Assembly: GCF_019797845.1 (NCBI RefSeq) | Contig: NZ_CP081864.1 | Span: 4,278,001-4,342,000 of the forward strand | DNA: 64,000 bases | Reading direction: 5' to 3' | Source: Symbiopectobacterium purcellii | GTDB taxonomy: Bacteria; Pseudomonadota; Gammaproteobacteria; Enterobacterales; Enterobacteriaceae | Part shown: in pieces, positions 6,339 to 28,427 of the stretch | How positions within the stretch are numbered: the first letter of the stretch is position 1 | Layout of the letters: every line of letters starts with the position of its first letter | Position numbers and translations under genes: made by a program | Notes under the pieces: model-generated | Told to the model about the DNA's origin: nothing | Databases searched by the model: none | Seen by the model: only the letters and a program-made list of their open reading frames with translations

Positions 6339-6436
6339 ATTTATTTTCTCTCGCGATTATTCCGCCTGCAACCTCCTAAGGGGGAGGTGGCTTGTTTGTT
6401 CGGTTTCTCTCAGTACTGGGTTCAGAAAAACACTAC

Positions 6437-9400
6437 ATGAAACATATACCCCCGGCTCAACCTGCGAATGCTGTTGCCTCCCCGGGTCTGCGCCGTCTGG
6501 TCTGGCTTAACATCGCGGTCCAGGCCGCCTTTCCGTTAGCGGTGGCCTTCACCCCGGTGATGGCGGGAGCTGGTGAGCAGCATTTTCTGCAGCAGCCTGC
6601 GCCACTGTCCTCACAGCGTACGCAGGTGTATACCCTGGGCGCCGGCGAGACCGCCGCTTCTGTTGCAAAAAAATACCACCTGACTCTGGAGCAACTGCGT
6701 GAGCTTAATCAGTTCCGTACCTTCGCACACGGCCTGAACGGCCTGCGGCCCGGGGATGACGTGGACGTGCCGGTGGTGATGAGGAAAGATAAAGAAACAT
6801 CATTAACCGCTTCCTCCGTGGATGCATCCGGTACCGCTGGCAATAACGCCCGGGAGTCCGCAGGCCGTGATGAAGGCGATGAGCAGGAGCAGAAGGTGGC
6901 CGGATATACCTCTCAGGCCGGGAGTTTCCTGGCCGGCAGCGCGAAAAGTGATGCAGCCGCTTCCATGGCCCGCGGTATGGCCACGGGTGAAGCCGGTGGC
7001 GCACTTCAGCAGTGGCTGAGTCATTTTGGTACCGCCCGCGTGCAGCTGGACGCGGATAAAAACTTCTCCCTGAAGAACTCGCAGTTTGACCTGCTGATGC
7101 CGCTGTATGACCAGGGGATGACCTGGTGTTCGCCCAGGGCAGCCTGCACCGGACCGACAGCCGGACTCAGGCCAACCTCGGTGCGGGCCTGCGTCACTTC
7201 ACCCCCACATACATGCTGGGCGGAAACCTGTTCGGGGACTACGACCTTTCCCGGGACCATGCGCGTATGGGGGCCGGTCTTGAGTACTGGCGTGACTTCC
7301 TGAAGCTGGGTGTCAACGGTTACATGCGTCTGACGGGCTGGAAGGACTCCCCGGACCTGGCCGACTACCAGGAGCGGCCGGCAAACGGCTGGGATGTCCG
7401 GGCGCAGGCGTGGGTGCCGTCCCTGCCGCAGCTGGGCGGAAAGCTGACGTACGAGCAGTACTACGGCAAAGAGGTCGCCCTGTTCGGGGTTGACAACCGC
7501 CAGAAGGATCCGCATGCAATCACGGCCGGGGTTAACTATACGCCTGTTCCGCTGATTACCCTGGAGGCAGAGCAGCGTCAGGGCCAGTCAGGTAAAAGCG
7601 ACACGCGATTCACCGTGGACATGAAATACCAGCTTGGGGTGCCGTGGCGTAATCAGGTGGACCCGGATGCTGTGGCGGCCATGCGCAGTCTTACGGGCAG
7701 CCGGTATGACCTGGTGGAGCGCAACAATAATATTGTGCTGGAGTATCGCAGGAAAGATGCAATACGACTGCATACAGTGGACCTGATTACCGGCCATGCC
7801 GGTGAGCAGAAATCCCTGGGGGTGTCGGTGACCAGCACGTACGGGCTGTCCCGCATTGACTGGGATGCCTCATCCCTGACCGCTGCCGGCGGTAAAGTTG
7901 TGCAGAACGGCGGGGATTACGCGGTGGTGCTCCCGGCATATCAGACCGCGGCTCAGGCGGTGAACACGTACACCGTCAGCGGTGTGGCGGTGGACACGAA
8001 GGGCAACCACTCTGAGCGGAGTGACACTCAGGTGACGGTGCAGGCGCCGGAGGTGAATAAACAGCACAGTACCTTCACCCCGGTGAGCAGCGTGCTGCCG
8101 GCGGACGGAAAGAGCACGCAGGTACTTACCCTGACGCTGCGGGATGAAAATAATCAGGCGGTGGATATTGATGTGAAGGATATCAGCCTGCAAGACAGTA
8201 CGCTGAAAAGTGCCGCAGTATCGGCCCTGACACGAAAATCTGCCGGTGTGTACACCGTCACGGTGACGGCGGGCACGGACAATGAGAATGTGACGCTGAC
8301 GCCGTCGGTAAGTGGCGTCACCCTGTCGCCGGCGGGGGTGACCATCAGCACGCCTGATGCGGACCAGTCGCAGTTCTCGGCGAGTTCGGAGACCATTGTG
8401 GCTGACAACACTGCCACCTCGGCACTGACGCTGGTTGCGAAGGATGCCCGGGGTAATTCTCTTACGGGCCTGAAGGACAGTCTGACGTTCGTGGTAACGG
8501 ACGGCAACGGTAAGGCACCGGCCAGCGGTGTTATCACGGAAAGCGCCATCACGGAGAGCGGTACAAAAGGGACATACACGGCGACCCTGAAGGGGGTCGC
8601 GGCAGGTAAATATACTGTTGTACCGCAATTCAATGGTACGGCCCTGGGTAGTCTGAGTGCGACAGTGACGCTCACGGCGGCCACACCGGCGCAGGCGACG
8701 TCGGCCATTAACGCTGACGCCACCACCTACGTCTCCGGTGCGGACATGCTCATCACCGTGACGCTGAAGGATGCACAGAGTAATGCGGTGACCGGGCAGC
8801 AAGCGGCCCTGACCAGCACTTCGGTGACGGTGGCGAACGCGACGCTGAAGTCGGGCAGCAGCTGGAAGGACAACGGCGACGGGACGTACACGGCAACGTA
8901 CACGGCCACCACGGCGGGGACGGACCTGAAGGCGAAGGTGAAGGCTTCAGGCTGGAGCGGCGCGGCGGCGTCTGAGGCGTATGCCATCACAGAACCTGTC
9001 ACGATAAAGCACGTCTCGGTAAATGGTTACACCTTTGAAAAAGACGCCGGCTTCCCGACCACGGGCTTTAAAGGGGCTGAATTTACCCTTGAACTGAGCA
9101 GCGGCAGCGCCTCTGATTATGACTGGACAACAGATGCGCCATCCTGGGTATCGGTGAGCGCAGGGGTGGTGAGCTTTACGGGCCAGGGAACAGGAGACAA
9201 GGTTACCATCACGGGCACGCCGAAAAGCGGCGGTAGGGCAATAGCCTACTCGTTCACCCTGGGCAGCTGGTTTATTAATAATGGTGGCGCATACATGAAC
9301 TGGACTGATGGCGCGGCATACTGCGCTGCACTGTCCGGCTACGGACAGCCAACGGTGCAGCAGCTTAACGGCGGTGGCAGTCTTTCCCGTGGTACCCGCG

Positions 9401-9594
9401 GCACTCTGGGCGGACTGTGGAGTGAGTGGGGAAATTTGAATAAATACACAGGCGCGGGTTTCTCCGGCAGCTATTACTGGTCGTCGGAGCAGAAGAGCAG
9501 CGGCAGCCACTACGACGTCAGCCTGAACGATGGCTACGTCCTCAGCTTCAACGACTACAACACGGACGTCGTGGTGTGTCGTCAGGGTCTTTAG
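6437..9594 (+). pseudogene. inverse autotransporter adhesin 1 (DGR target), one frameshift
   Basis: This is an intimin/invasin-type outer-membrane adhesin. An N-terminal signal region is followed by a LysM-like domain (VYTLGAGETAASVAKKYHL) that binds peptidoglycan and by the conserved 12-strand beta-barrel. Ig-like Big_1/invasin repeats come next, then a C-terminal C-type-lectin-like domain ending in VR1. A base is missing at about 7113-7117 (CAGGGGATGACC; the second copy is in frame there). The gene therefore reads as two pieces, 6437-7117 frame and 7126-9594; with one base restored it encodes 1052 residues. The exposed end of inverse autotransporters binds host or partner-cell receptors. 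IS630 lies 98 bp upstream and may disturb its promoter. Confidence 0.85.
9451..9588 (+). repeat. DGR variable repeat 1 (VR1)
   Basis: This 138-bp stretch at the 3' end of adhesin 1 is colinear with the template repeat at 10371-10508, without gaps. They differ at 17 positions, of which 15 are A in the template. The two exceptions are one C to T and one T to G. The last 26 bases, including GTGGTGTGTCGTCAGGG, are identical and form the expected initiation-of-mutagenic-homing region. Encoded residues such as WSSEQ and VVCRQG are constant, while template Asn codons have become Ser, Tyr, Asp, Leu, Phe and Val. Confidence 0.93.
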
Positions 9595-9647
9595 CATTTA
9601 GTCTTTAATTTTTAACCTTTGGTTTTTTATTTTTAATTGCTTTTACC

Positions 9648-9673
9648 CTCCCCCCGCGTTCCCGCGGTGGGAG
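9648..9673 (+). other. GC-rich hairpin just after VR1
   Basis: CTCCCCCCGCG and CGCGGTGGGAG pair at 10 of 11 positions around a 4-base loop (TTCC). No T-run follows, so it is not a typical intrinsic terminator. Hairpin or cruciform structures shortly after the VR stimulate retrohoming in the Bordetella phage DGR. This one lies about 60 bp past the end of VR1, further away than in that phage. The assignment is inferred. Confidence 0.5.
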
Positions 9674-9687
9674 TCTGAGGAGAATGA

Positions 9688-10183
9688 ATGATGGAGATAA
9701 AGGAGAGGCTGGCGCTGAGTGCCCGTCCGGGAAAGCTTACGCTTATCCGGGAGGGCATGTTCCTGAAATGCTACCAGCAGTCGTTGTTTTTACTGATGCA
9801 TTCCGTATATCCGGATATCAAAGTTACCGGACGCAGGATAAAAAAGCTCGGCGGGCAGGCTGTATTCAGCGGCGGCTTTCCTGAGGCGGTGCTGGCAAAG
9901 GTCCTGCCGGAGGCACAGTTCACCGACTGGGGTGCCGAAGCTGACACAGATAATATTGACGAGGTCGCATATCAGTCATGGCTTACCGCACTCCCCCTGG
10001 CGGAAGATAAGGGTGGGGGTGATGTGACGTCCGACAGGCAATCAGCCCCCCCCTGTACTGAGCGAGGAGGAATGTCACTTTCTGGACAGCTGGCAGCCAG
10101 GGCTGTTCCCGTCGTCGGTGGATGCAGGGTTCATTCAGGGTCTGAAGGTCCGGAGAAAAAACAATAACGGTCAGGTGGCCTGA
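9688..10183 (+). pseudogene. DGR-associated accessory gene of unknown function, frameshifted at a C8 tract
   Basis: A small gene lies between VR1 and TR. The first part (from ATG 9688, GAGGAG upstream) reads LRE-type helical sequence such as REGMFLKCYQQSLFLLMHSV. At 10046-10053 a run of eight C throws it out of frame. With seven C the frame continues into LSEEECHFLDSWQPGLFP and ends at 10183, giving 164 residues. The downstream frame is confirmed by a second copy at 24090-24299 with nearly the same C-terminus. I do not recognise the family. It is not the Avd protein, which is encoded at 11861. Its position suggests a role in retrohoming or in adhesin display, but this is inference. Confidence 0.7.
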
Positions 10184-10370
10184 CAGCGCAGCGGCACGGA
10201 TGGTGCGCAATGGGTCGCGCCGTTAAGGCGACGCGAAAACGCGCCATGAAAGAAGACCGGCCTGCTTCACGTTTTCCGGTACCAGGGAAAGCGTTATTAA
10301 GGGGTGAACGTCGCAAGGCGGTAAACCGGCGGTATCAGAAAGCAGGCATTTGTGAGGGAGTCTGTTGTGT

Positions 10371-10508
10371 GGCGCGGGTTTCTCCGGCAACAACAACTGG
10401 TCGTCGGAGCAGAAGAGCAGCGGCAACCACTACTACGTCAACCTGAACAATGGCAACGTCAACAGCAACAACGACAACAACACGAACAACGTGGTGTGTC
10501 GTCAGGGT
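10371..10508 (+). repeat. DGR template repeat (TR)
   Basis: This 138-bp intergenic sequence matches VR1 and VR2 without gaps but is unusually rich in AAC triplets; in the VR frame it would read runs of Asn. Asn codons (AAC/AAT) are the hallmark of DGR templates, because randomising the two A positions reaches many residues and avoids stops. It lies 782 bp after VR1 in the same orientation and 84 bp from the 3' end of the convergent reverse transcriptase gene. The RNA copied by the RT would come from the + strand, opposite to the RT gene. Confidence 0.93.
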
Positions 10509-10591
10509 GTTCTTGCCATCCTTGCCGCTGCGCCGTCAGGCTACAGATACAGATAACATACTTTTGTTTCAGATAAGAACTGATGGTGCGT

Positions 10592-11868
10592 TTATCCGGC
10601 ATGAACGGACAGATGCTGGCCGGCAACCCAGTCCTGCATACAGCATTTTTTGATGCGCATGGAGGTATATTGCGGGCCATTCGGCAGCATGTATCCTGTC
10701 AGCAGGCCTCCATGGCGACGCCAGATATCTCTGCGCAGACGAAAATGCGTGGCGTGCTTCATCATGCCGTAATAGCTGTTAATCACGCCCTGCATACGCT
10801 GCAACAGGGCCAGCTCAGGAAGTAATGAGCCGGTATCAGCCAGGCACATCCACTCAGGCCTGGCGGCGATATGTGCTGCGGGGTGCCTGGACGAGCCGGA
10901 CAGCAGGTTGTTAAAAAAACGCAGCCAGGCCACCAGTTTCGTGATGTTGCGTTTTCTGAGGTGCAGATAGTGGGGGTAAACCCGGTACCCCAGGTAATCG
11001 GCTCCCTGATGGCAGGCCTGCAGGGTTTGTTTGTGAGGGTGAAGTGTAAGCTCCAGCTCTTCCTGCATAAAATGCCTGATGGCCTGCCGGTATCGGGAGA
11101 GTTGCGCCGTTGAGCTGCCAAACAGGATGAGGTCATCCATATAGCGGACATATCCCTTAATCCGCAGGGTGTGCTTTATATAATGGTCGAGGGGGGGGCC
11201 ATAAACAACCCGGCCAGCATCTGACTGGACGCAGACCCGAGTGGAAGTCCCCTGTCAGGTCCTGCCGCAAGCAGAGTTTTGTGTGCGGGAATGCTGTCCA
11301 GCAAAAGGCGGTCACCGCTGATAGTGAAGGTATTTGCTGGTGCTGCATACCGGATGCTTTTTTCCAGTATATCGCGGATTTGTGTCCGCAACGGATGCGA
11401 AGACATATAGCGGGTCATCAGCGTATCGCATTGCCGGAGAAGCGCTGAATGCGGGATGCTGTTGAAGAAGTTCTGAACATCGAGTTGCAGATAGTACCCG
11501 TTTCCGGGGCGGCGCATGAACGTCTGTGCACGGTAAACGGCAGCCAGTACTCCGCGACCTCGCCGGTTCGCATATGTGTCGTCAATAAGCACCCTTTCAA
11601 CAAAAGGGGTCAGGTGATACACAAGCCAGTTCTGCGCCAGCCGGTCCCGAAAGGCAGGAGCATAAATCTCACGGAGCTTAGGGTCAGTGACGGCGAACCG
11701 TGTGTAGGGTGATGGTGTGTATGAGTGTGAGAATATGTCGGCTGCGAGCTGACGACAGGTACGGGAGACCGTTTCCATGCTTGCAGATTTTTGGATACTG
11801 CGTTGCGTCAGCGTAACGCAGTGAAGAAGTTGATAATGAATTTGTTCTGGAGTAAAGACAGTGTCCAC
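10592..11868 (-). pseudogene. DGR reverse transcriptase, out of frame at a C8 tract
   Basis: The N-terminal half reads typical DGR-RT sequence: a fingers region (YTRFAVTDPKLREIYAPAFRDRLAQNWL), YLQLDVQNFFNSI with the first catalytic Asp, and GLPLGSASSQ. The last is the DGR-type SQ version of motif 4. The C-terminal half holds the active site YMDD (VRYMDDLILFGSS) and LHPHKQ. The halves are separated by a run of eight C on the coding strand (11191-11198), which causes premature stop. Nine C would restore a 425-residue protein, and six C a 424-residue one with a closer match to the usual LDHYIKH spacing. The GTG start at 11868 overlaps the start of avd by eight bases on the other strand. The enzyme copies TR RNA with adenine-specific errors. 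Confidence 0.9.
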
Positions 11869-12262
11869 GTTTAAACAACCCCTGGTTTACGATGCGCTGC
11901 TGCTTTTGTACCGCACGTACTGGGTGACGCACCGACACCTCCCGCGGGCATTCCGGATGACGACCGGAGAGGCTATTTTACAGGAAATCACCGACTGCAT
12001 TAAGCAGGTGATACTGGCAAATAATGTGGATAAACAGGATGCCGGACAGCGCAGTCAGTCAGTGCAGCATCTGGGATGTACAAGAGCTTCGCTTGTTGTT
12101 ATCAGGGGGCTTCTGACGCTGGGATGGGGAATGACATTTATTGCTCATGGTGCTTTTATGCGGCTGACGACGTTACTGGATTCAGCCGAGAAGCAGATTA
12201 CGCGCTGGCAGGGTTGGTTTATGCGTCGTGATGCGGGGAGTGGCACATTACATGAACAATGA
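11861..12262 (+). CDS. avd: accessory variability determinant (Avd-like) protein
   Basis: This 133-residue protein has the Avd/S23-like four-helix pattern. It includes the conserved LPRAFRMTTGEAILQEI segment at about residues 27-43 and a final amphipathic helix with basic residues (EKQITRWQGWFMRR). Avd pentamers bind the DGR reverse transcriptase and template RNA and are needed for mutagenic homing. The GTG start at 11861 follows GGAG at eight bases. The gene is divergent from the RT gene, and their starts overlap by eight bases. This is the only core DGR protein gene here that is intact. The assignment rests on helical pattern, motif and position. Confidence 0.75.
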   Translation: MSTFKQPLVYDALLLLYRTYWVTHRHLPRAFRMTTGEAILQEITDCIKQVILANNVDKQDAGQRSQSVQHLGCTRASLVVIRGLLTLGWGMTFIAHGAFMRLTTLLDSAEKQITRWQGWFMRRDAGSGTLHEQ

Positions 12263-22599: not shown

Positions 22600-23977
22600 G
22601 AGTTATGCTCATTTCTGGTGTATGAGGTTTTAGAGAGGGTTGCGTATCCTGCTGATTGATTTCGTGGATGATTTCAACAACAGCGAGATGATACGCCATG
22701 AAAAAGTCTACCCTACAGGTCTCCGCAGAACCAGATATTACCGGTGCTCCCTTGCATGAACTCATCCGTAATGGTGCCAGACAACTGATAGCTGCCGCCG
22801 TTGAGGCTGAGCTCGAAGCCATGCGGCAACAACATGCTGAACGTCGTCTTGACGATGGGCGTCATGCCGTCGTCCGTAACGGGTATTTGCCACAGAGAAC
22901 CATACAGACGGGTATTGGCGATGTTGAAGTTAAAGTGCCTAAGGTCAGAGCTCGCAGCGGCAACGGAATAGGCTTCAACAGCGCGTTGCTACCGCCTTAT
23001 CTGAAACGTGCAACAAGCGTCGAAGCGTTGCTACCATGGCTGTACCTGCGAGGCATATCCACCGGTGATTTTCACGAAGCCCTGAAGGCGCTTCTCGGTG
23101 AAAAAGCCAATGGGCTCTCTGCCAGTACCATCAGCAGACTGAAACAGCAATGGCTCGAAGAGCACAGGCAATGGTGCCTGCGTGATTTAAGCGATACGCG
23201 CTACGTTTATTGCTGGGCCGATGGCATAGACAGCCATGTCAGGCAAGATGATCGCCTTTGCCTGCTGGTCATTATCGGCGTCACTGAGCATGGACGTAAG
23301 GAGCTGGTTGCAGTCGAAGATGGTTATCGAGAGTCAGAAGCCAACTGGGCCGAACTCCTCAATGGCCTGCGAGCACGTGGCCTAACCGTATCTCCCAAGC
23401 TGGCTACGGGAGACGGTGCCCTTGGTTTTTGGAATGCCATGGCAAAGATATATCCCGGACACGCAGCACCAACGCTGTTGGGTGCACAAAACGGCTAATG
23501 TGCTGGCTTCACTCCCCAAAGCCATGCAACCGAAAGTTAAGGCTGAGCTGCGGGAGGTCTGGCTAGCAGAGAGCCGCGATGCCGCTAATGAAGCCTTTGA
23601 TGTTTTGTTGGCAAGGTTTTCAGCGAAGTCTCCTGCAGCGATGAAGAAGCTGGAGAAAGATCGAGAAGAACGGCTGGCATTTTACGACTTTCCGGCAGAG
23701 CACTGGGCGTCAATAAGAACGACAAATCCGATTGAATCGGCTTTTGCGACTGTGAGACTACGAAGTAGACGCGCGAAGCACTGTGGTTCGAGAGAAACCA
23801 CCCTGTCAATGGTATTGAAGCTGCTTCAGTCTGCTCAGAAAAGCTGGAACCGGCTAAGAGGATTTGACCTGCTGACCCTGGTGGTAAACAACATCCAATT
23901 TAAGGATGGAGAACAGATTCACGAAGCATCAGAGCGGAACGTAGCCTGATCGCCATACACCGATTTGCTAATAACTC
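22600..23977 (+). mobile_element. IS256-family element with a broken transposase
   Basis: The element is about 1.38 kb. Its ends are recognisable as related inverted sequences, GAGTTATgctcatttctGGTGTATG at the left versus the reverse complement of the right end. The right limit is supported because sequence homologous to the DGR region (10.1-10.3 kb) stops exactly there. No matching flanking duplication was found. Its insertion removed the part of the second DGR cassette that would hold a TR. Confidence 0.75.
22698..23949 (+). pseudogene. IS256-family transposase, one frameshift
   Basis: The protein of this mutator-type DDE family starts MKKSTLQVSAEPDITG and includes PKVRARSGNGIGFN and YCWADGIDSHVRQDD with catalytic Asp. 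At about 23458 an extra G (CCCGGACACG) shifts the frame. The remainder continues in the next frame as QRCWVHKTANVLASLP and ends with the Glu-containing RTTNPIESAFATVRLR. Without the extra base it would be 416 residues. The two halves overlap perfectly in homology, so a single indel is responsible. Transposition from this copy alone is unlikely. Confidence 0.9.
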
Positions 23978-24089
23978 ACGCTTTCCCTGGTGTCGGAAAA
24001 ACGTGAAGCAGGCCGGTCTTCTTTCATGGCGCGTTTTCGCGTCGCCTTAACGGCGCGACCCATCGCGCACCACCTGCGCCGCTGCGCTG

Positions 24090-24299
24090 TCAGACCACCT
24101 GACCGTTATTATTTTTCCGCCGGGCCTTCAGCCCCTGAATGAAACCCGCGTCCACCGATAACGGAAACAGACCCGGCTGCCAGCTGTCCAGAAAACGGCA
24201 GTCTTCCCCGCTCAGGATGGGGTGGTCCAACTACCCGCCAGGCATAACGCCTCCCCCTACGTTATCTCCCACCAGAGAGAGCGCGGCAAGCCAGGACTG
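24090..24299 (-). pseudogene. remnant of a second DGR accessory gene
   Basis: On the minus strand, directly after the stop codon of adhesin 2, reading frames give QSWLAALSL and then LSGEDCRFLDSWQPGLFPL, followed by GFIQGLKARRKNNNGQVV. These match the C-terminal half of the gene at 9688-10183, whose end is GLKVRRKNNNGQVA. The N-terminal half and the normal intergenic spacer, including the hairpin, are deleted, and an in-frame TAG interrupts it. Homology with 10184-10300 continues beyond the stop up to the IS256 end. This shows that adhesin 2 once had the same gene order downstream as adhesin 1. Confidence 0.8.
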
Positions 24300-24310
24300 A
24301 AAAGCTAAAG

Positions 24311-24448
24311 ACCCTGACGACATACAACGTCGTGCATGTCTCTGTCGTCGCCGTTGTTGACGTAGCCATAGTGCAGGCTGACGTAGTAGTGGTAGCCACT
24401 GCTCTTCTGCTCCGACGACCAGCTGCTGTAGCTGGAGAAAGCCGCGCC
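24311..24448 (-). repeat. DGR variable repeat 2 (VR2)
   Basis: This 138-bp stretch at the 3' end of adhesin 2 is colinear with TR. It differs at 23 positions, of which 15 are A in TR and 8 are not (for example G to C, C to T, G to T). VR1 has only two non-adenine differences, so VR2 was most likely written from a related but different template. The terminal GTCGTCAGGGT and the WSSEQKSSG core are conserved. It encodes Tyr, Ser, His, Asp and Gly at template Asn positions. Confidence 0.88.
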
Positions 24449-25487
24449 GGAGTAGTTAAGTAGATTACCCCACTCATTCCACAATGCTCCTGTGCTGCGG
24501 ACTTGCGTTGCGGTATAGCCCGAATGCAGGATCATCTGTGCGACAGTCGGCAGACTGTAACCTGGCCGCGAGCTGCAGTACTTATTTGCGGCAGACCAGT
24601 TCAATAGGGTCGAACCGTTATTTATGAACCAGCTGTTGAGGGTGAAACTGTATTCGATGGTGTTCCCCGAGCCACTGGTTGGTTTGCCCGTGATAGTGAC
24701 TTTGCTGCCCGTGCCCGTACCGGTGAACTTCACTACCCCGTTTGTCACCGAGACCCAGCTGGCATCGGATGCCCAGGTGTAGTCCGAAGCTGAACCGGTC
24801 GTTAAGTTCAGTGTGAAGCTTGCCCCTGTGAGCCCGGTGGTCGGAAATCCAGCGTCTTTTTCGAACGTGTAACCATTTACAGTAACATCCTTCAGCGCGG
24901 GACTTTCCGTAATGGCATACGCCCCAGACTCTGTCTTTTCGCTCCAGTCGCTCAGCTTCAGCGCCGCCTTCAGGTTCGCGCCCGCCGTCACCGCCGTGTA
25001 GGTGCCGGTGTAGGTCCCGTCACCGTTATCCTGCCAGCTGCTGCCCGACTTCAGCGTCGCGTTCGCCACCGTCACCGAAGTGCTGGTCAGGGCCGCTTGC
25101 TGCCCGGTCACCGCATTACCCTGTGCATCCTTCAGCGTCACGGTGATGAGCATGTCCGCACCGGAGACGTAGGTGGTGGCGTCAGCGTTAATGGCCGACG
25201 TGGCTTGCGCCGGTGTGGCCGCCGTAATGGCATACGCCTCAGACTCTGTCTTTTCGCTCCAGTCGCTCAGCTTCAGCGCCGCCTTCAGGTTCGCGCCCGC
25301 CGTCACCGCCGTGTAGGTGCCGGTGTAGGTCCCGTCACCGTTATCATGCCAGCTGCTGCCCGACTTCAGCGTTGCGTTCTGCACGGTCACCGCCTCCGCC
25401 GTCAGCGAGGACGATGCCCCGGTCACCGCGTTGCCCTGCGCGTCCTTCAGCGTCACCGTGACCGTCATGTCCGCGCCGGACACGTAG

Positions 25488-26117
25488 GTGGTGGCATCGG
25501 TTTTAATGGCAGAGCCCGCCTGCACCGCGCTGCCCGCCGTGATGGCATACACCTCAGACGCCGCCGCGCCGCTCCAGCCTGAAGCCTTCACCTTCGCCTT
25601 CAGGTCCGTCCCCGCCGTGGTGGCCGTGTACGTTGCCGTGTACGTCCCGTCGCCGTTGTCCTTCCAGCTGCTGCCCGACTTCAGCGTTGCGTTCTGCACG
25701 GTCACCGCCTCCGCCGTCAGCGAGGACGATGCCCCGGTCACCGCGTTGCCCTGCGCGTCCTTCAGCGTCACCGTGACCGTCATGTCCGCGCCGGACACGT
25801 AGGTGGTGGCATCGGTTTTAATGGCAGAGCCCGCCTGCACCGCGCTGCCCGCCGTGATGGCATACACCTCAGACGCCGCCGCGCCGCTCCAGCCTGAAGC
25901 CTTCACCTTCGCCTTCAGGTCCGTCCCCGCCGTGGTGGCCGTGTACGTTGCCGTGTACGTCCCGTCGCCGTTGTCCTTCCAGCTGCTGCCCGACTTCAGC
26001 GTTGCGTTCTGCACGGTCACCGCCTCCGCCGTCAGCGAGGACGATGCCCCGGTCACCGCGTTGCCCTGCGCGTCCTTCAGCGTCACCGTGACCGTCATGT
26101 CCGCGCCGGACACGTAG
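25488..26117 (-). repeat. two identical 315-bp tandem repeats in adhesin 2
   Basis: Units 25488-25802 and 25803-26117 give the same translation on both strands, so they are identical or nearly so at the DNA level. Each encodes one 105-residue Ig-like domain (TYVSGADMTVTVTLKDAQGN...KASGWSGAAASEVYAIT). Diverged copies flank them on both sides. Such perfect tandem repeats allow domain number to change by recombination, altering the length of the stalk. Confidence 0.9.
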
Positions 26118-28427
26118 GTGGTGGCATCGGTTTTAATGGCAGAGCCCGCCTGCACCGCGCTGCCCGCCTTCAGCGTCACCGTCGCGCTCAGGCTCCCGAT
26201 GACCGTTCTGTTGTATTCTGGCACGATGGTGTATCTGCCCGACGCCGCTCCCTTCAGGGTTGCCGTGTAGGTCCCTTTTGTGCTGCTCTCCACGATGGGG
26301 CTTTCCGTGAGGGCTCCGCCTGCCGCCTTACCGCTGCTGTCTTTTGCCGTGAATGTCAGGCTGTCCTTCAGGCCCGTCAGGGCGTTACCCTGCGCGTCCT
26401 TCGCGACCAGCGTCAGCGTGGAAACGGCCGTGTTGTCAGCCACAATAGTCTCCGGGCCTGCCGTGAATACCGACTGCCCGCCATCGGGCAGGGTACTGAC
26501 GACGGTCACTCTGGCCGGGGACAGCGCGATACCACCGACCACCGGCGTCAGGGTCACAGTTTCGTTATCCGTTCCTGCTGTTACCGTCACGGTGTAGACC
26601 CCGGGGGATTTCCGGGTCAGCGCCGATACCGCAGCGCTTTTCCGCGTGCTGCTGTTCAGGCTGATGTCTTTTACGTCCAAATCCACAGGCTGGTTATTGC
26701 CGTCCCGCAGCGTCAGGGTCAGCACCTGCACGCTTTTCCCGTCCGCCGGCACCACGCTGCTCTCCGGCGTAAAGGTTGAGGCTCCTTTGTCGACCTCCGG
26801 TGCCTGCACCATCACCTGAGTGTCACTCCGGTCAGAACGGTTGCCCTTTACGTCCACCGCCACACCGCTGACGGTGTACGTGTTCACCGCCTGCGTCGCG
26901 TTCTGGTACGCCGGGAGTACCACCGCGTAACTTCCGCCATCCTGCACGACCCTCCCGCCAGCCGCGCTCAGTGCCTGTGCATCCCAGTCAATACGGGACA
27001 GTCCGTACGTGCTGGTCACGGAGACGCCAAGCGACTTCTGCTCCCCGGGGTGTCCCGTCACCAGGCCTGCCGTGTGCAGGCGAATGACCTCTTTCTTACG
27101 GTACTCCAGCACGATATTGTTGTTGCGCTCCACCAGGTAGGTCATACCGGCTGCCCGACAGGCTGCGCATGGCGGCCACCGACGTCGGGTCGACCTGGGT
27201 TCGCCACGGCACCCCGAGCTGGTAATTCATGCCCATCGTCAGGCGGGTGTCACTTTTCCCTGACTGCCCCTGACGCCGCTCTGCCCCCAGGGTAATCAAC
27301 GGCACCGGCGTGTAGTTAATCCCGACGGTGATGGCGTGCGGGTTTTTCTGCCGGGCGTCCACCCCGAACAGAGCCACTTCGTTACCGTAGTACTGCTCAT
27401 ACGTCAGCTTACCGCCCAGTTGAGGGAGGGACGGCATCCAGCCCTGCGCCCGGACGTCCCAGCCGTTGGCCGGACGCTCCTGATAGTCAACCAGGTCCGG
27501 AGAGTCCTTCCACCCTGTCAGGCGCATGTAACCGTTGGCACTCAGCTTCAGGAAGTTGCGCCAGTACTCAACACCGGCGCCGGCACGCGCATGGTCGCGT
27601 GACAGGTCATAGTCACCGAACAGGTTCCCTCCCAGCATGTAGGTGGGAGTAAAATGTCGCCACCCGGCACCGAGATTAGCCTGGGTCCGGCTGTCAGTAC
27701 GGTGCAGGCTGCCCTGGGTGAACATCAGGTTATCGCCCTGGTCATACAAGGGCATCAGCAGGTCGAACTGCGAGTTTTTCAGGGAGAAGTTTTTGTCTGC
27801 GTCCAGCTGCACGCGGGCGGTCCCAAAATGACTCAGCCACTGCTGAAGGGTCCCGCCAACCTCGCCGGTGGCCATACCGCGGGCCATGGAAGCGGCGGCA
27901 TCACTTTTTGCGCTGCCCGCCAGGAAACTCCCGGCCCGTGTGGCGTAGCCTGCGACCTGCTGCGCCTGCATGTCTTCGTTATTCTGACCGGGAACTGAGG
28001 TTGCAGGGGCATCATCCCAGCGCACTTCCGGAAGCGGTGCCACCGGAACATCCAGTTCATCACCTGGCTGCAGGTGGTCAAAGCCACGCGCGAAAGTGCG
28101 GAACTGGTTGAGCTCACGCAGTTGCCCGAGAGACAGATGGTATTTTCTGGCAACGGAGGTGACGGTCTCACCCGCACTCAGTGTGTAGACCTGCGTACGC
28201 TGCGCGGATAATGGCGCGGGCTGCCGCAGAAAATGCTGCTCACTTGCTACCGCCATCAACGGGGTGAAAGTGGTGGCCAGCGGGAAGGTCGCCTGGAGCA
28301 CTATGTTAAACCAGGCCAGCCGGCGCAGGCCCAGGGAGAAGGCAGCATCCGCAGGCGGATGTGATGAGTGTGAATGTTTCATGTTTATTTACCCAGTACA
28401 AAAAAAACAAAAGAATTATCCAAATAC

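What the first reader, a model, noticed from the sequence alone, without database searches (positions are those of the whole stretch)
9451..12262. A diversity-generating retroelement with VR, TR, reverse transcriptase and Avd
A 138-bp intergenic, AAC-rich sequence (10371-10508) is a gapless match to the 3' end of the adhesin gene (9451-9588). They differ at 17 positions, 15 of them A in the template. Beside it lie a reverse transcriptase with the DGR-type GLPLGxxxSQ and YMDD motifs and an Avd-like four-helix gene. Together these are the defining parts of a DGR. DGRs are rare in Enterobacterales as far as I know.
Basis: partly seen in the sequence, partly recalled or inferred. Interest (0 to 1): 0.95.

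Follow-up and report, generated by a model that had tools for sequence, protein, structure and literature searches.

The report
Retroelement that rewrites an invasin-type adhesin
This bacterial chromosome carries a diversity-generating retroelement whose template copy differs from the tip of an invasin-like surface adhesin almost only at the template's adenines, so the adhesin's predicted binding surface has likely been rewritten on purpose, although the reverse-transcriptase gene reads as broken in this assembly and current activity is untested.

The parts
6392..7303 (+). 5' frame of adhesin 1: LysM and start of the inverse-autotransporter beta-domain
   Evidence: Pfam IAT_beta 1e-9, LysM 5e-4 (just below cut-off)
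7126..9594 (+). 3' frame of adhesin 1: rest of IAT beta-domain, Invasin_D3, Invasin_D4, C-terminal tip with VR1; the frame breaks from the 5' part near 7.1 kb
   Evidence: Pfam IAT_beta 2.6e-88, Invasin_D3 1.9e-35, Invasin_D4 9.3e-6 (just below cut-off)
8995..9591 (+). tip predicted to fold like the C-terminal Ig-like plus C-type-lectin-like domains of invasin and intimin
9451..9588 (+). VR1
   Evidence: 15 of 17 mismatches at TR adenines
9648..9673 (+). G+C-rich hairpin 59 bases past VR1; possible IMH-type hairpin or a terminator
   Evidence: DNA fold; role untested
9688..10167 (+). conserved accessory ORF of unknown function; its 3' part departs from relatives' frame near a C run at about 10050
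   Evidence: homologues beyond RT in 10 of 12 relatives of the RT clade; break
10168..10370 (+). TR leader, 201 of 203 bases identical to Cedecea
10371..10508 (+). TR (template repeat)
10592..11140 (-). C-terminal piece of the reverse transcriptase (YMDDL; first ATG at 11140, profile match reaches 11203)
   Evidence: RVT_1 0.0014, below cut-off; PHROG RT 1.1e-21; tree
11176..11868 (-). N-terminal piece of the reverse transcriptase (GLPLGSASSQ); frames meet between 11191 and 11203
   Evidence: RVT_1 5e-9; PHROG RT 3.7e-39; tree
11861..12262 (+). Avd gene
   Evidence: PHROG 3206 Avd protein of DGR 1.8e-8; protein 98% identical to Cedecea
24305..27145 (-). 3' frame of adhesin 2 (Ig-like repeats by eye, and tip with VR2)
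   Evidence: ORF list
27096..28382 (-). 5' frame of adhesin 2 (IAT beta-domain by eye, from likeness to adhesin 1); frame breaks near 27.1 kb
   Evidence: ORF list
24311..24448 (-). VR2
   Evidence: 23 mismatches to TR, 15 at A
23978..24300 (-). remnant of the accessory ORF and TR leader beside VR2, without TR or RT: a decayed second cassette
   Evidence: 83% identity over 324 columns to 9972-10294; one TR and one RT place in the genome

Best explanation
This is an inverted-type diversity-generating retroelement whose 138-base template differs from the 3' end of an invasin-type adhesin gene at 17 sites, 15 of them template adenines, and which has likely overwritten the adhesin's predicted C-type-lectin-like tip by adenine-mutating reverse transcription of the template. 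Shown by sequence: TR, VR1, VR2, Avd, RT in two pieces, TR on the strand opposite RT, adenine-focused differences, and silent-site homogenisation of VR. Inferred: TR RNA is made from the plus strand, the RT with Avd copies it with errors at A, the cDNA replaces VR, and the variants change what the adhesin binds. The sequenced isolate may be unable to do this now, because the RT reads as frame-broken; that break may be real or a sequence error.
For: TR/VR and A-bias. RT in the DGR clade: best PDB profile hit is 8ub7 (named 'Reverse transcriptase'; that this is the BPP-1 phage DGR enzyme is recalled) at 153.9 bits; next come 5hhl at 79.5 (named 'Retron-type reverse transcriptase'; a group II intron enzyme by recall) and 7uim at 78.9 (group II); chains named after particular retrons reach at most 31.2. 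In the tree the window pieces and Cedecea lie in a 14-row clade (SH-aLRT 100) inside a 28-row DGR-type group (87). Avd. Template copying: window vs Cedecea pre-VR dS 0.688, dN 0.175; VR dS 0.035, dN 0.235. Recent diversification in relatives: L053 vs L020 pre-VR 0 synonymous and 1 non-synonymous change in 143 codons, VR about 30 non-synonymous in 43 codons; L055 vs L045 0 and 4 against 0 and 21. Adhesin family: at 15 TR-Asn sites mean entropy 3.31 bits against 1.89 at 31 other VR sites and 1.52 at 143 pre-VR sites; 886 of 950 residues there can be reached from AAC by changes at its two A, against 1689 of 1970 at other VR sites and 1264 of 1554 at 25 highly variable (H 2.5 bits or more) pre-VR sites. 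RT pieces show constraint, dN/dS 0.16 and 0.38 against Cedecea.
Against: RT, accessory ORF and both adhesins are frame-broken as assembled. 8 of 23 VR2 differences are not at A, and VR2 lacks the tidy downstream hairpin. Avd falls below the NCBIfam and Pfam cut-offs. The best NCBIfam model for both RT pieces is group II maturase, far below its cut-off (57.9 and 28 against 300 bits). The TR/VR finders required at least 70% and 75% of mismatches at the template base, so their per-locus ratios are selected; the Cedecea and relative VR places used came from them. The dN/dS of the accessory ORF is 0.62, a weak constraint. No RNA, cDNA or population data.
Confidence: 0.9

Rival explanations
1. A truly dead DGR relic: the RT, the accessory ORF and both adhesins have decayed in this strain, and the VRs are fossils of past activity.
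For: Four frame-broken genes in the locus; the VR2 copy has no TR or RT beside it; 8 non-A changes in VR2; IS-type genes around it.
Against: VR1 carries only 2 non-A changes, one of which is an A site in the Cedecea TR; the RT N-piece is 96% identical to an open Cedecea RT and both pieces show dN/dS 0.16-0.38; other genes of this assembly are split too (2 of 7 ACR_tran loci, against 0 of 8 and 0 of 7 in two congeners), so the breaks may be sequence errors.
Confidence: 0.4
2. The frame breaks are assembly or base-calling errors and the DGR is intact in the living strain.
For: Two breaks sit at G/C runs (RT about 11191-11203, accessory ORF about 10050); split RND genes and 3 MFS matches with in-frame stops elsewhere in G000, none among the listed rows of two congeners.
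Against: The break in adhesin 2 is not at a homopolymer; the window lies among many IS-type genes, where real decay is common; the MFS table was cut off before its end.
Confidence: 0.5
3. The RT is phase-variable through its G/C run, switching diversification on and off.
For: The frame break lies at a G/C run.
Against: The long run is not conserved in the open Cedecea copy; other genes of this genome are also split. Length variation at the run was not tested.
Confidence: 0.05
4. No retroelement: VR-like patterns come from recombination among adhesin genes plus selection on a lectin-like binding surface.
For: 66 database tips are hypervariable at the same sites, and I did not establish which of them sit beside an RT; two plasmid loci with related adhesins had no TR, RT, Avd or accessory ORF within 6 kb.
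Against: It does not explain changes centred on template adenines with silent sites kept, nor a neighbouring non-coding TR with a DGR-clade RT and Avd.
Confidence: 0.04

Closest known systems
'Inverted' (Group 4) DGRs: Shewanella baltica OS155, Vibrio sp. RC586, Photobacterium angustum S14 (Schillinger et al. 2012, PMC3521204; outline, sections 8 and 15 and passages seen)
   [quoted passage not shown] long repeats; RT in the same clade as a S. baltica plasmid RT (OS117); plasmid-borne kin; the accessory ORF is present in the S. baltica OS117 locus too
   Different: target here is an invasin-type inverse autotransporter in an Enterobacteriaceae-like genome; a second VR in a second adhesin; RT frame-broken in this assembly. 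The accessory ORF was not named in the passages and sections I saw
Bordetella phage BPP-1 DGR (mtd-avd-TR-brt)
   Same: TR/VR, adenine mutagenesis, RT and Avd homologues, lectin-like target fold (architecture recalled, in part from passages; RT match)
   Different: RT convergent with TR; different target; the accessory ORF stands between target and TR
Invasin (Yersinia) and intimin (E. coli) adhesins
   Same: IAT beta-domain, Ig-like stalk, predicted C-terminal tip
   Different: here the C-terminal lectin-like domain holds a VR; I know of no DGR beside classical inv or eae (recalled, not searched)
Legionella collagen-like protein C-terminal domain (8q4e)
   Different: weaker match than invasin; different stalk (collagen-like)

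Membership tests
Diversity-generating retroelement | near-identical TR and VR, VR in the 3' end of a target gene | tested here: met
Diversity-generating retroelement | TR/VR differences at TR adenines | tested here: met
   VR1 15 of 17, Cedecea 18 of 19, VR2 15 of 23
Diversity-generating retroelement | RT of the DGR clade with (I/V/L)GxxxSQ | tested here: met
   GLPLGSASSQ; tree; PDB profile; motif described in PMC3521204 section 8
Diversity-generating retroelement | accessory factor Avd (common, not universal) | tested here: met
   PHROG 3206 E 1.8e-8; below cut-off in NCBIfam and Pfam
Diversity-generating retroelement | IMH and hairpin past VR | tested here: inconclusive
   G+C-rich hairpin tens of bases past VR1 and in relatives, some terminator-like; not tidy past VR2; IMH itself not tested
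Diversity-generating retroelement | mutagenic retrohoming observed | not testable with these tools
   needs live cells; footprint only
Active DGR in this isolate | open RT reading frame | tested here: not met
   two frames meeting at 11191-11203 in this assembly; open copy in Cedecea
Inverted (Group 4) DGR | RT on the strand opposite TR, VR and target | tested here: met
   window, and 9 of 9 relatives of the clade with a TR/VR pair
Inverted (Group 4) DGR | RT clusters with the published inverted RTs | tested here: met
   S. baltica OS117 plasmid RT in the same 13-row clade, SH-aLRT 98; OS155 itself scores alike but was not in the tree, nor were Vibrio RC586 and P. angustum
Inverse autotransporter (invasin/intimin) | IAT beta-domain and Ig-like/lectin-like passenger | tested here: met
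   (adhesin 1)
Inverse autotransporter (invasin/intimin) | single open gene | tested here: not met
   adhesin 1 and adhesin 2 each in two frames in this assembly; 53 of 67 tip homologues, own included, carry the beta-domain in one protein
Group II intron or retron RT | RT groups with these classes | tested here: not met
   lower PDB scores; sub-cut-off NCBIfam hits

The most novel reading that the evidence does not exclude
Enterobacterales carry an invasin/intimin-type adhesin repertoire whose receptor-binding lectin-like tips are written by a plasmid-travelling inverted DGR, with a dedicated cassette protein of unknown function; the C-type-lectin-like tip of invasin and intimin would then belong to the same evolutionary pool as DGR variable domains, and related tips without an RT beside them, as in the Escherichia albertii plasmid, would be frozen products of past DGR writing.
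Probability: 0.35. Interest if true: 0.85.

Novelty: new variant of a known kind. Interest (0 to 1): 0.74.

Why it matters
If the mechanism runs in living relatives, some Enterobacterales can vary the tip of an invasin-type adhesin far faster than ordinary mutation would allow. That joins two well-studied subjects, intimin/invasin adhesion and DGRs, and gives a testable system in cultured bacteria. It also offers a possible source for the sequence diversity seen in related adhesin tips.

Tried and rejected
Accessory ORF as a MutS-like protein: suggested by eye, not supported. No Pfam hit, only two weak single-member hits, no PDB profile hit at E 10 (one search gave one, a cytochrome, at E 0.57), poor model, pLDDT 53. 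The Avd profile in the PDB gave no chain named Avd (best a designed protein, E 0.006). No RNA family over threshold in 1-40 kb. In 9.4-12.3 kb, 1 promoter-like site against 1.9 expected; 6 terminator-like sites against 2.6 expected, none used here. No near DNA match of 9241-12262 in E. coli genomes or plasmids and no distant match of 9000-10600 in E. coli genomes; those collections may leave out the window's own genome. One scan of viral contigs with the RT N-piece found nothing; an RT alignment found 23 loci. Genus: 0 of 4 congeners has this RT clade; one weak hit (L005) is an RT of another group. PADLOC hits are generic RT matches. The fold lists (best 50 each) name no known DGR target protein; that is not read as evidence against the fold. 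Phage records with distant RT matches: 64.

Literature, open-licence papers only: 'diversity-generating retroelement' with 'inverse autotransporter' 0 papers; with invasin or intimin, two phage papers among the 20 of 290 shown, the other 18 without the DGR term; shown each, none with the DGR term; with phase variation or homopolymeric, one DGR paper among 20 shown; with Enterobacterales 2 papers; with Yersinia 18 papers, 15 listed; some searches were listings too. PMC8144416: passages only, main text with no 'Enterobact', 'invasin' or 'autotransporter'. PMC6642488: passages only, no 'Enterobacter' or 'invasin'.

Rows dropped or labelled: in the tree, 30 DGR-type loci were listed and 25 entered; L022, L034, L036, L038 and L039 were dropped because the motif filter found no RT frame. 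Of the 25 rows labelled DGR_TRVR, 6 (L024, L025, L043, L046, L047, L048) gave no TR/VR pair; L043, L046 and L047 end before the target. The 22 'other' rows are L005 and a choice from the loci; L075 among them has an SQ motif and falls with the DGR rows. A7 used 37 of the 67 proteins.
Full report
What is there. The window lies at 4278001-4342000 of a single 4,942,431-base contig. TR (10371-10508, plus) and VR1 (9451-9588, plus) match over 138 bases without a gap; 15 of 17 mismatches fall on the 43 template adenines, P 2.9e-7. In frame, the template reads as many AAC (Asn) codons set in a fixed scaffold, and the A changes fall at codon positions 1 and 2 only. A search of the whole genome with TR gives three places: TR, VR1 and VR2 at window 24311-24448 minus. 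VR2 differs from TR at 23 sites, 15 at A, P 2.4e-4, with 8 at other bases.

The genes. RT: minus strand, two pieces, 11868-11176 and 11140-10592 by first start codon; profile matches show the frames meeting at 11191-11203. Avd: 11861-12262 plus. Accessory ORF: 9688-10167 plus, no family. Adhesin 1: IAT beta-domain and invasin D3 by Pfam, D4 just below cut-off, in two frames. Adhesin 2 carries VR2, also in two frames. Beside VR2 lies a remnant (23978-24300) of the accessory ORF and TR leader; the genome holds one TR and one RT place. So a second cassette has decayed there, and any rewriting of VR2 now would have to use the TR 14 kb away.

Is it a DGR? The RT profile built from ten homologues scores 153.9 bits on PDB 8ub7; next are 5hhl at 79.5, named 'Retron-type reverse transcriptase' (a group II intron enzyme by recall), and 7uim at 78.9, group II; chains named after particular retrons reach 31.2. 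That 8ub7 is the BPP-1 enzyme is recalled. In a 49-row tree the two window pieces and the Cedecea RT sit in a 14-row clade (SH-aLRT 100), within 22 rows (99) and 28 rows (87) of DGR-type RTs; 21 of the 22 other RTs fall outside, and the one inside, L075, has an SQ motif. RT homologues found with the N-piece are few: 24 at E 1e-3 in 5.8 billion clustered proteins, by a word-based search of limited reach.

Relatives and architecture. Cedecea neteri NBRC 105707 holds the same cassette with an open RT frame of 430 aa. Of the 12 relatives in the 14-row clade, 9 gave a TR/VR pair, all with RT opposite TR and target: mismatches at template A 18/19 (L006), 18/20 (L020), 19/19 (L044), 18/18 (L045), 12/12 (L052), 19/20 (L053), 17/17 (L054), 18/18 (L055) and 16/16 (L056) (one search shows the L044 pair untrimmed at 19 of 21). 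The finder demanded 75% or more, so these ratios are selected. The other three (L043, L046, L047) end before the target. A homologue of the accessory ORF stands beyond RT in 10 of 12, in two of which (L043, L046) the contig then ends; L047 ends earlier, and L056 has IS30-type genes there. Relatives lie on plasmids of Yersinia hibernica, Shewanella baltica, Vibrio vulnificus and Aeromonas caviae. This is the 'inverted' DGR type of Schillinger et al. 2012 (PMC3521204, section 15). In Yersinia hibernica the VR lies in a separate 395-codon stop-to-stop frame, about 2.4 kb by my arithmetic from the inverse autotransporter gene, so joining tip and beta-domain in one gene is not universal.

Footprint of template copying. 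Window vs Cedecea: the 143 codons before VR have dS 0.688 and dN 0.175; the 46 VR codons have dS 0.035 and dN 0.235. Silent sites in VR are thus at least as close as those in RT and Avd (dS 0.05-0.11) although the adjoining tip has drifted far. The same holds for VR1 vs VR2 (pre-VR dS 2.3, near saturation; VR 0.17). Near-identical pairs show it freshly: L053 (Y. hibernica plasmid) vs L020 (a viral-contig record), pre-VR 0 synonymous and 1 non-synonymous, VR about 30 non-synonymous in 43 codons; L055 (Vibrio plasmid) vs L045 (a genome of the window's order), 0 and 4 against 0 and 21. The leader and TR are the parts most like Cedecea, 201/203 and 136/138, against RT 1227/1275, Avd 394/402 and accessory ORF 450/476, as expected of a template RNA.

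State in this isolate. The RT and accessory ORF break at G/C runs; the break in adhesin 2 is not at a homopolymer, and that in adhesin 1, near 7.1 kb, was not placed exactly. G000 has 2 split genes among 7 ACR_tran loci against 0 of 8 and 0 of 7 in two congeners, and three MFS matches with in-frame stops against none in the listed rows of the congeners (that table was cut off). So either the assembly has errors or the genome is decaying; the tools cannot decide. Relatives with an open RT exist. VR1 carries almost only A changes, which suggests that any loss of RT would be recent (the argument of PMC3521204, section 8).

How common. RT of this type at E 1e-20 in 3 of 392 genomes of the family, own included. 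At E 1e-60, 7 of 394 of the order, of which 6, own included, belong to the 14-row clade, and 4 of 369 of the class, of which only the window's own belongs to it. Own genus: none of 4 others. The locus is thus rare and patchy in these samples, and likely carried in by mobile DNA; it sits among IS-type and plasmid-type genes.

Verdict. A real DGR of the inverted type, confirmed with independent evidence of template copying; new in its target and host group as far as the searches reach; activity in this isolate unproven.

Noticed in passing
window 1-44000: A plasmid-like island with many IS-type genes (IS630-type transposase, resolvases, DUF1380, DNA methylase, HicB-like antitoxin; by eye also relaxase-, SSB- and ParA-like ORFs) next to what looks like a cysE/gpsA and LPS-core chromosomal region (names by eye).
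   Followed up: partly
G000 C1:2906833-2909780 and 3178051-3181082: Two ACR_tran (RND pump) genes are split in this assembly while two congeners have none split: indel errors or genome decay.
   Followed up: partly
window 25488-26117: Adhesin 2 contains Ig-like repeats so alike that the same antisense ORF appears twice in tandem, 315 bases apart.
   Followed up: no
protein P0043 (named from Salmonella Senftenberg, 106 members): Its first 35 residues match the accessory ORF before diverging: a possible remnant of this cassette in Salmonella.
   Followed up: no
L053 11122-17021 (Yersinia hibernica pCFS1934): An inverse autotransporter and two SinI-family genes lie upstream of a separate VR-bearing frame that the gene table does not list; possibly a several-gene version of the same adhesin system.
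   Followed up: partly
window 22698-23949: A transposase beside VR2 (IS256-like by eye) is split into two frames.
   Followed up: no
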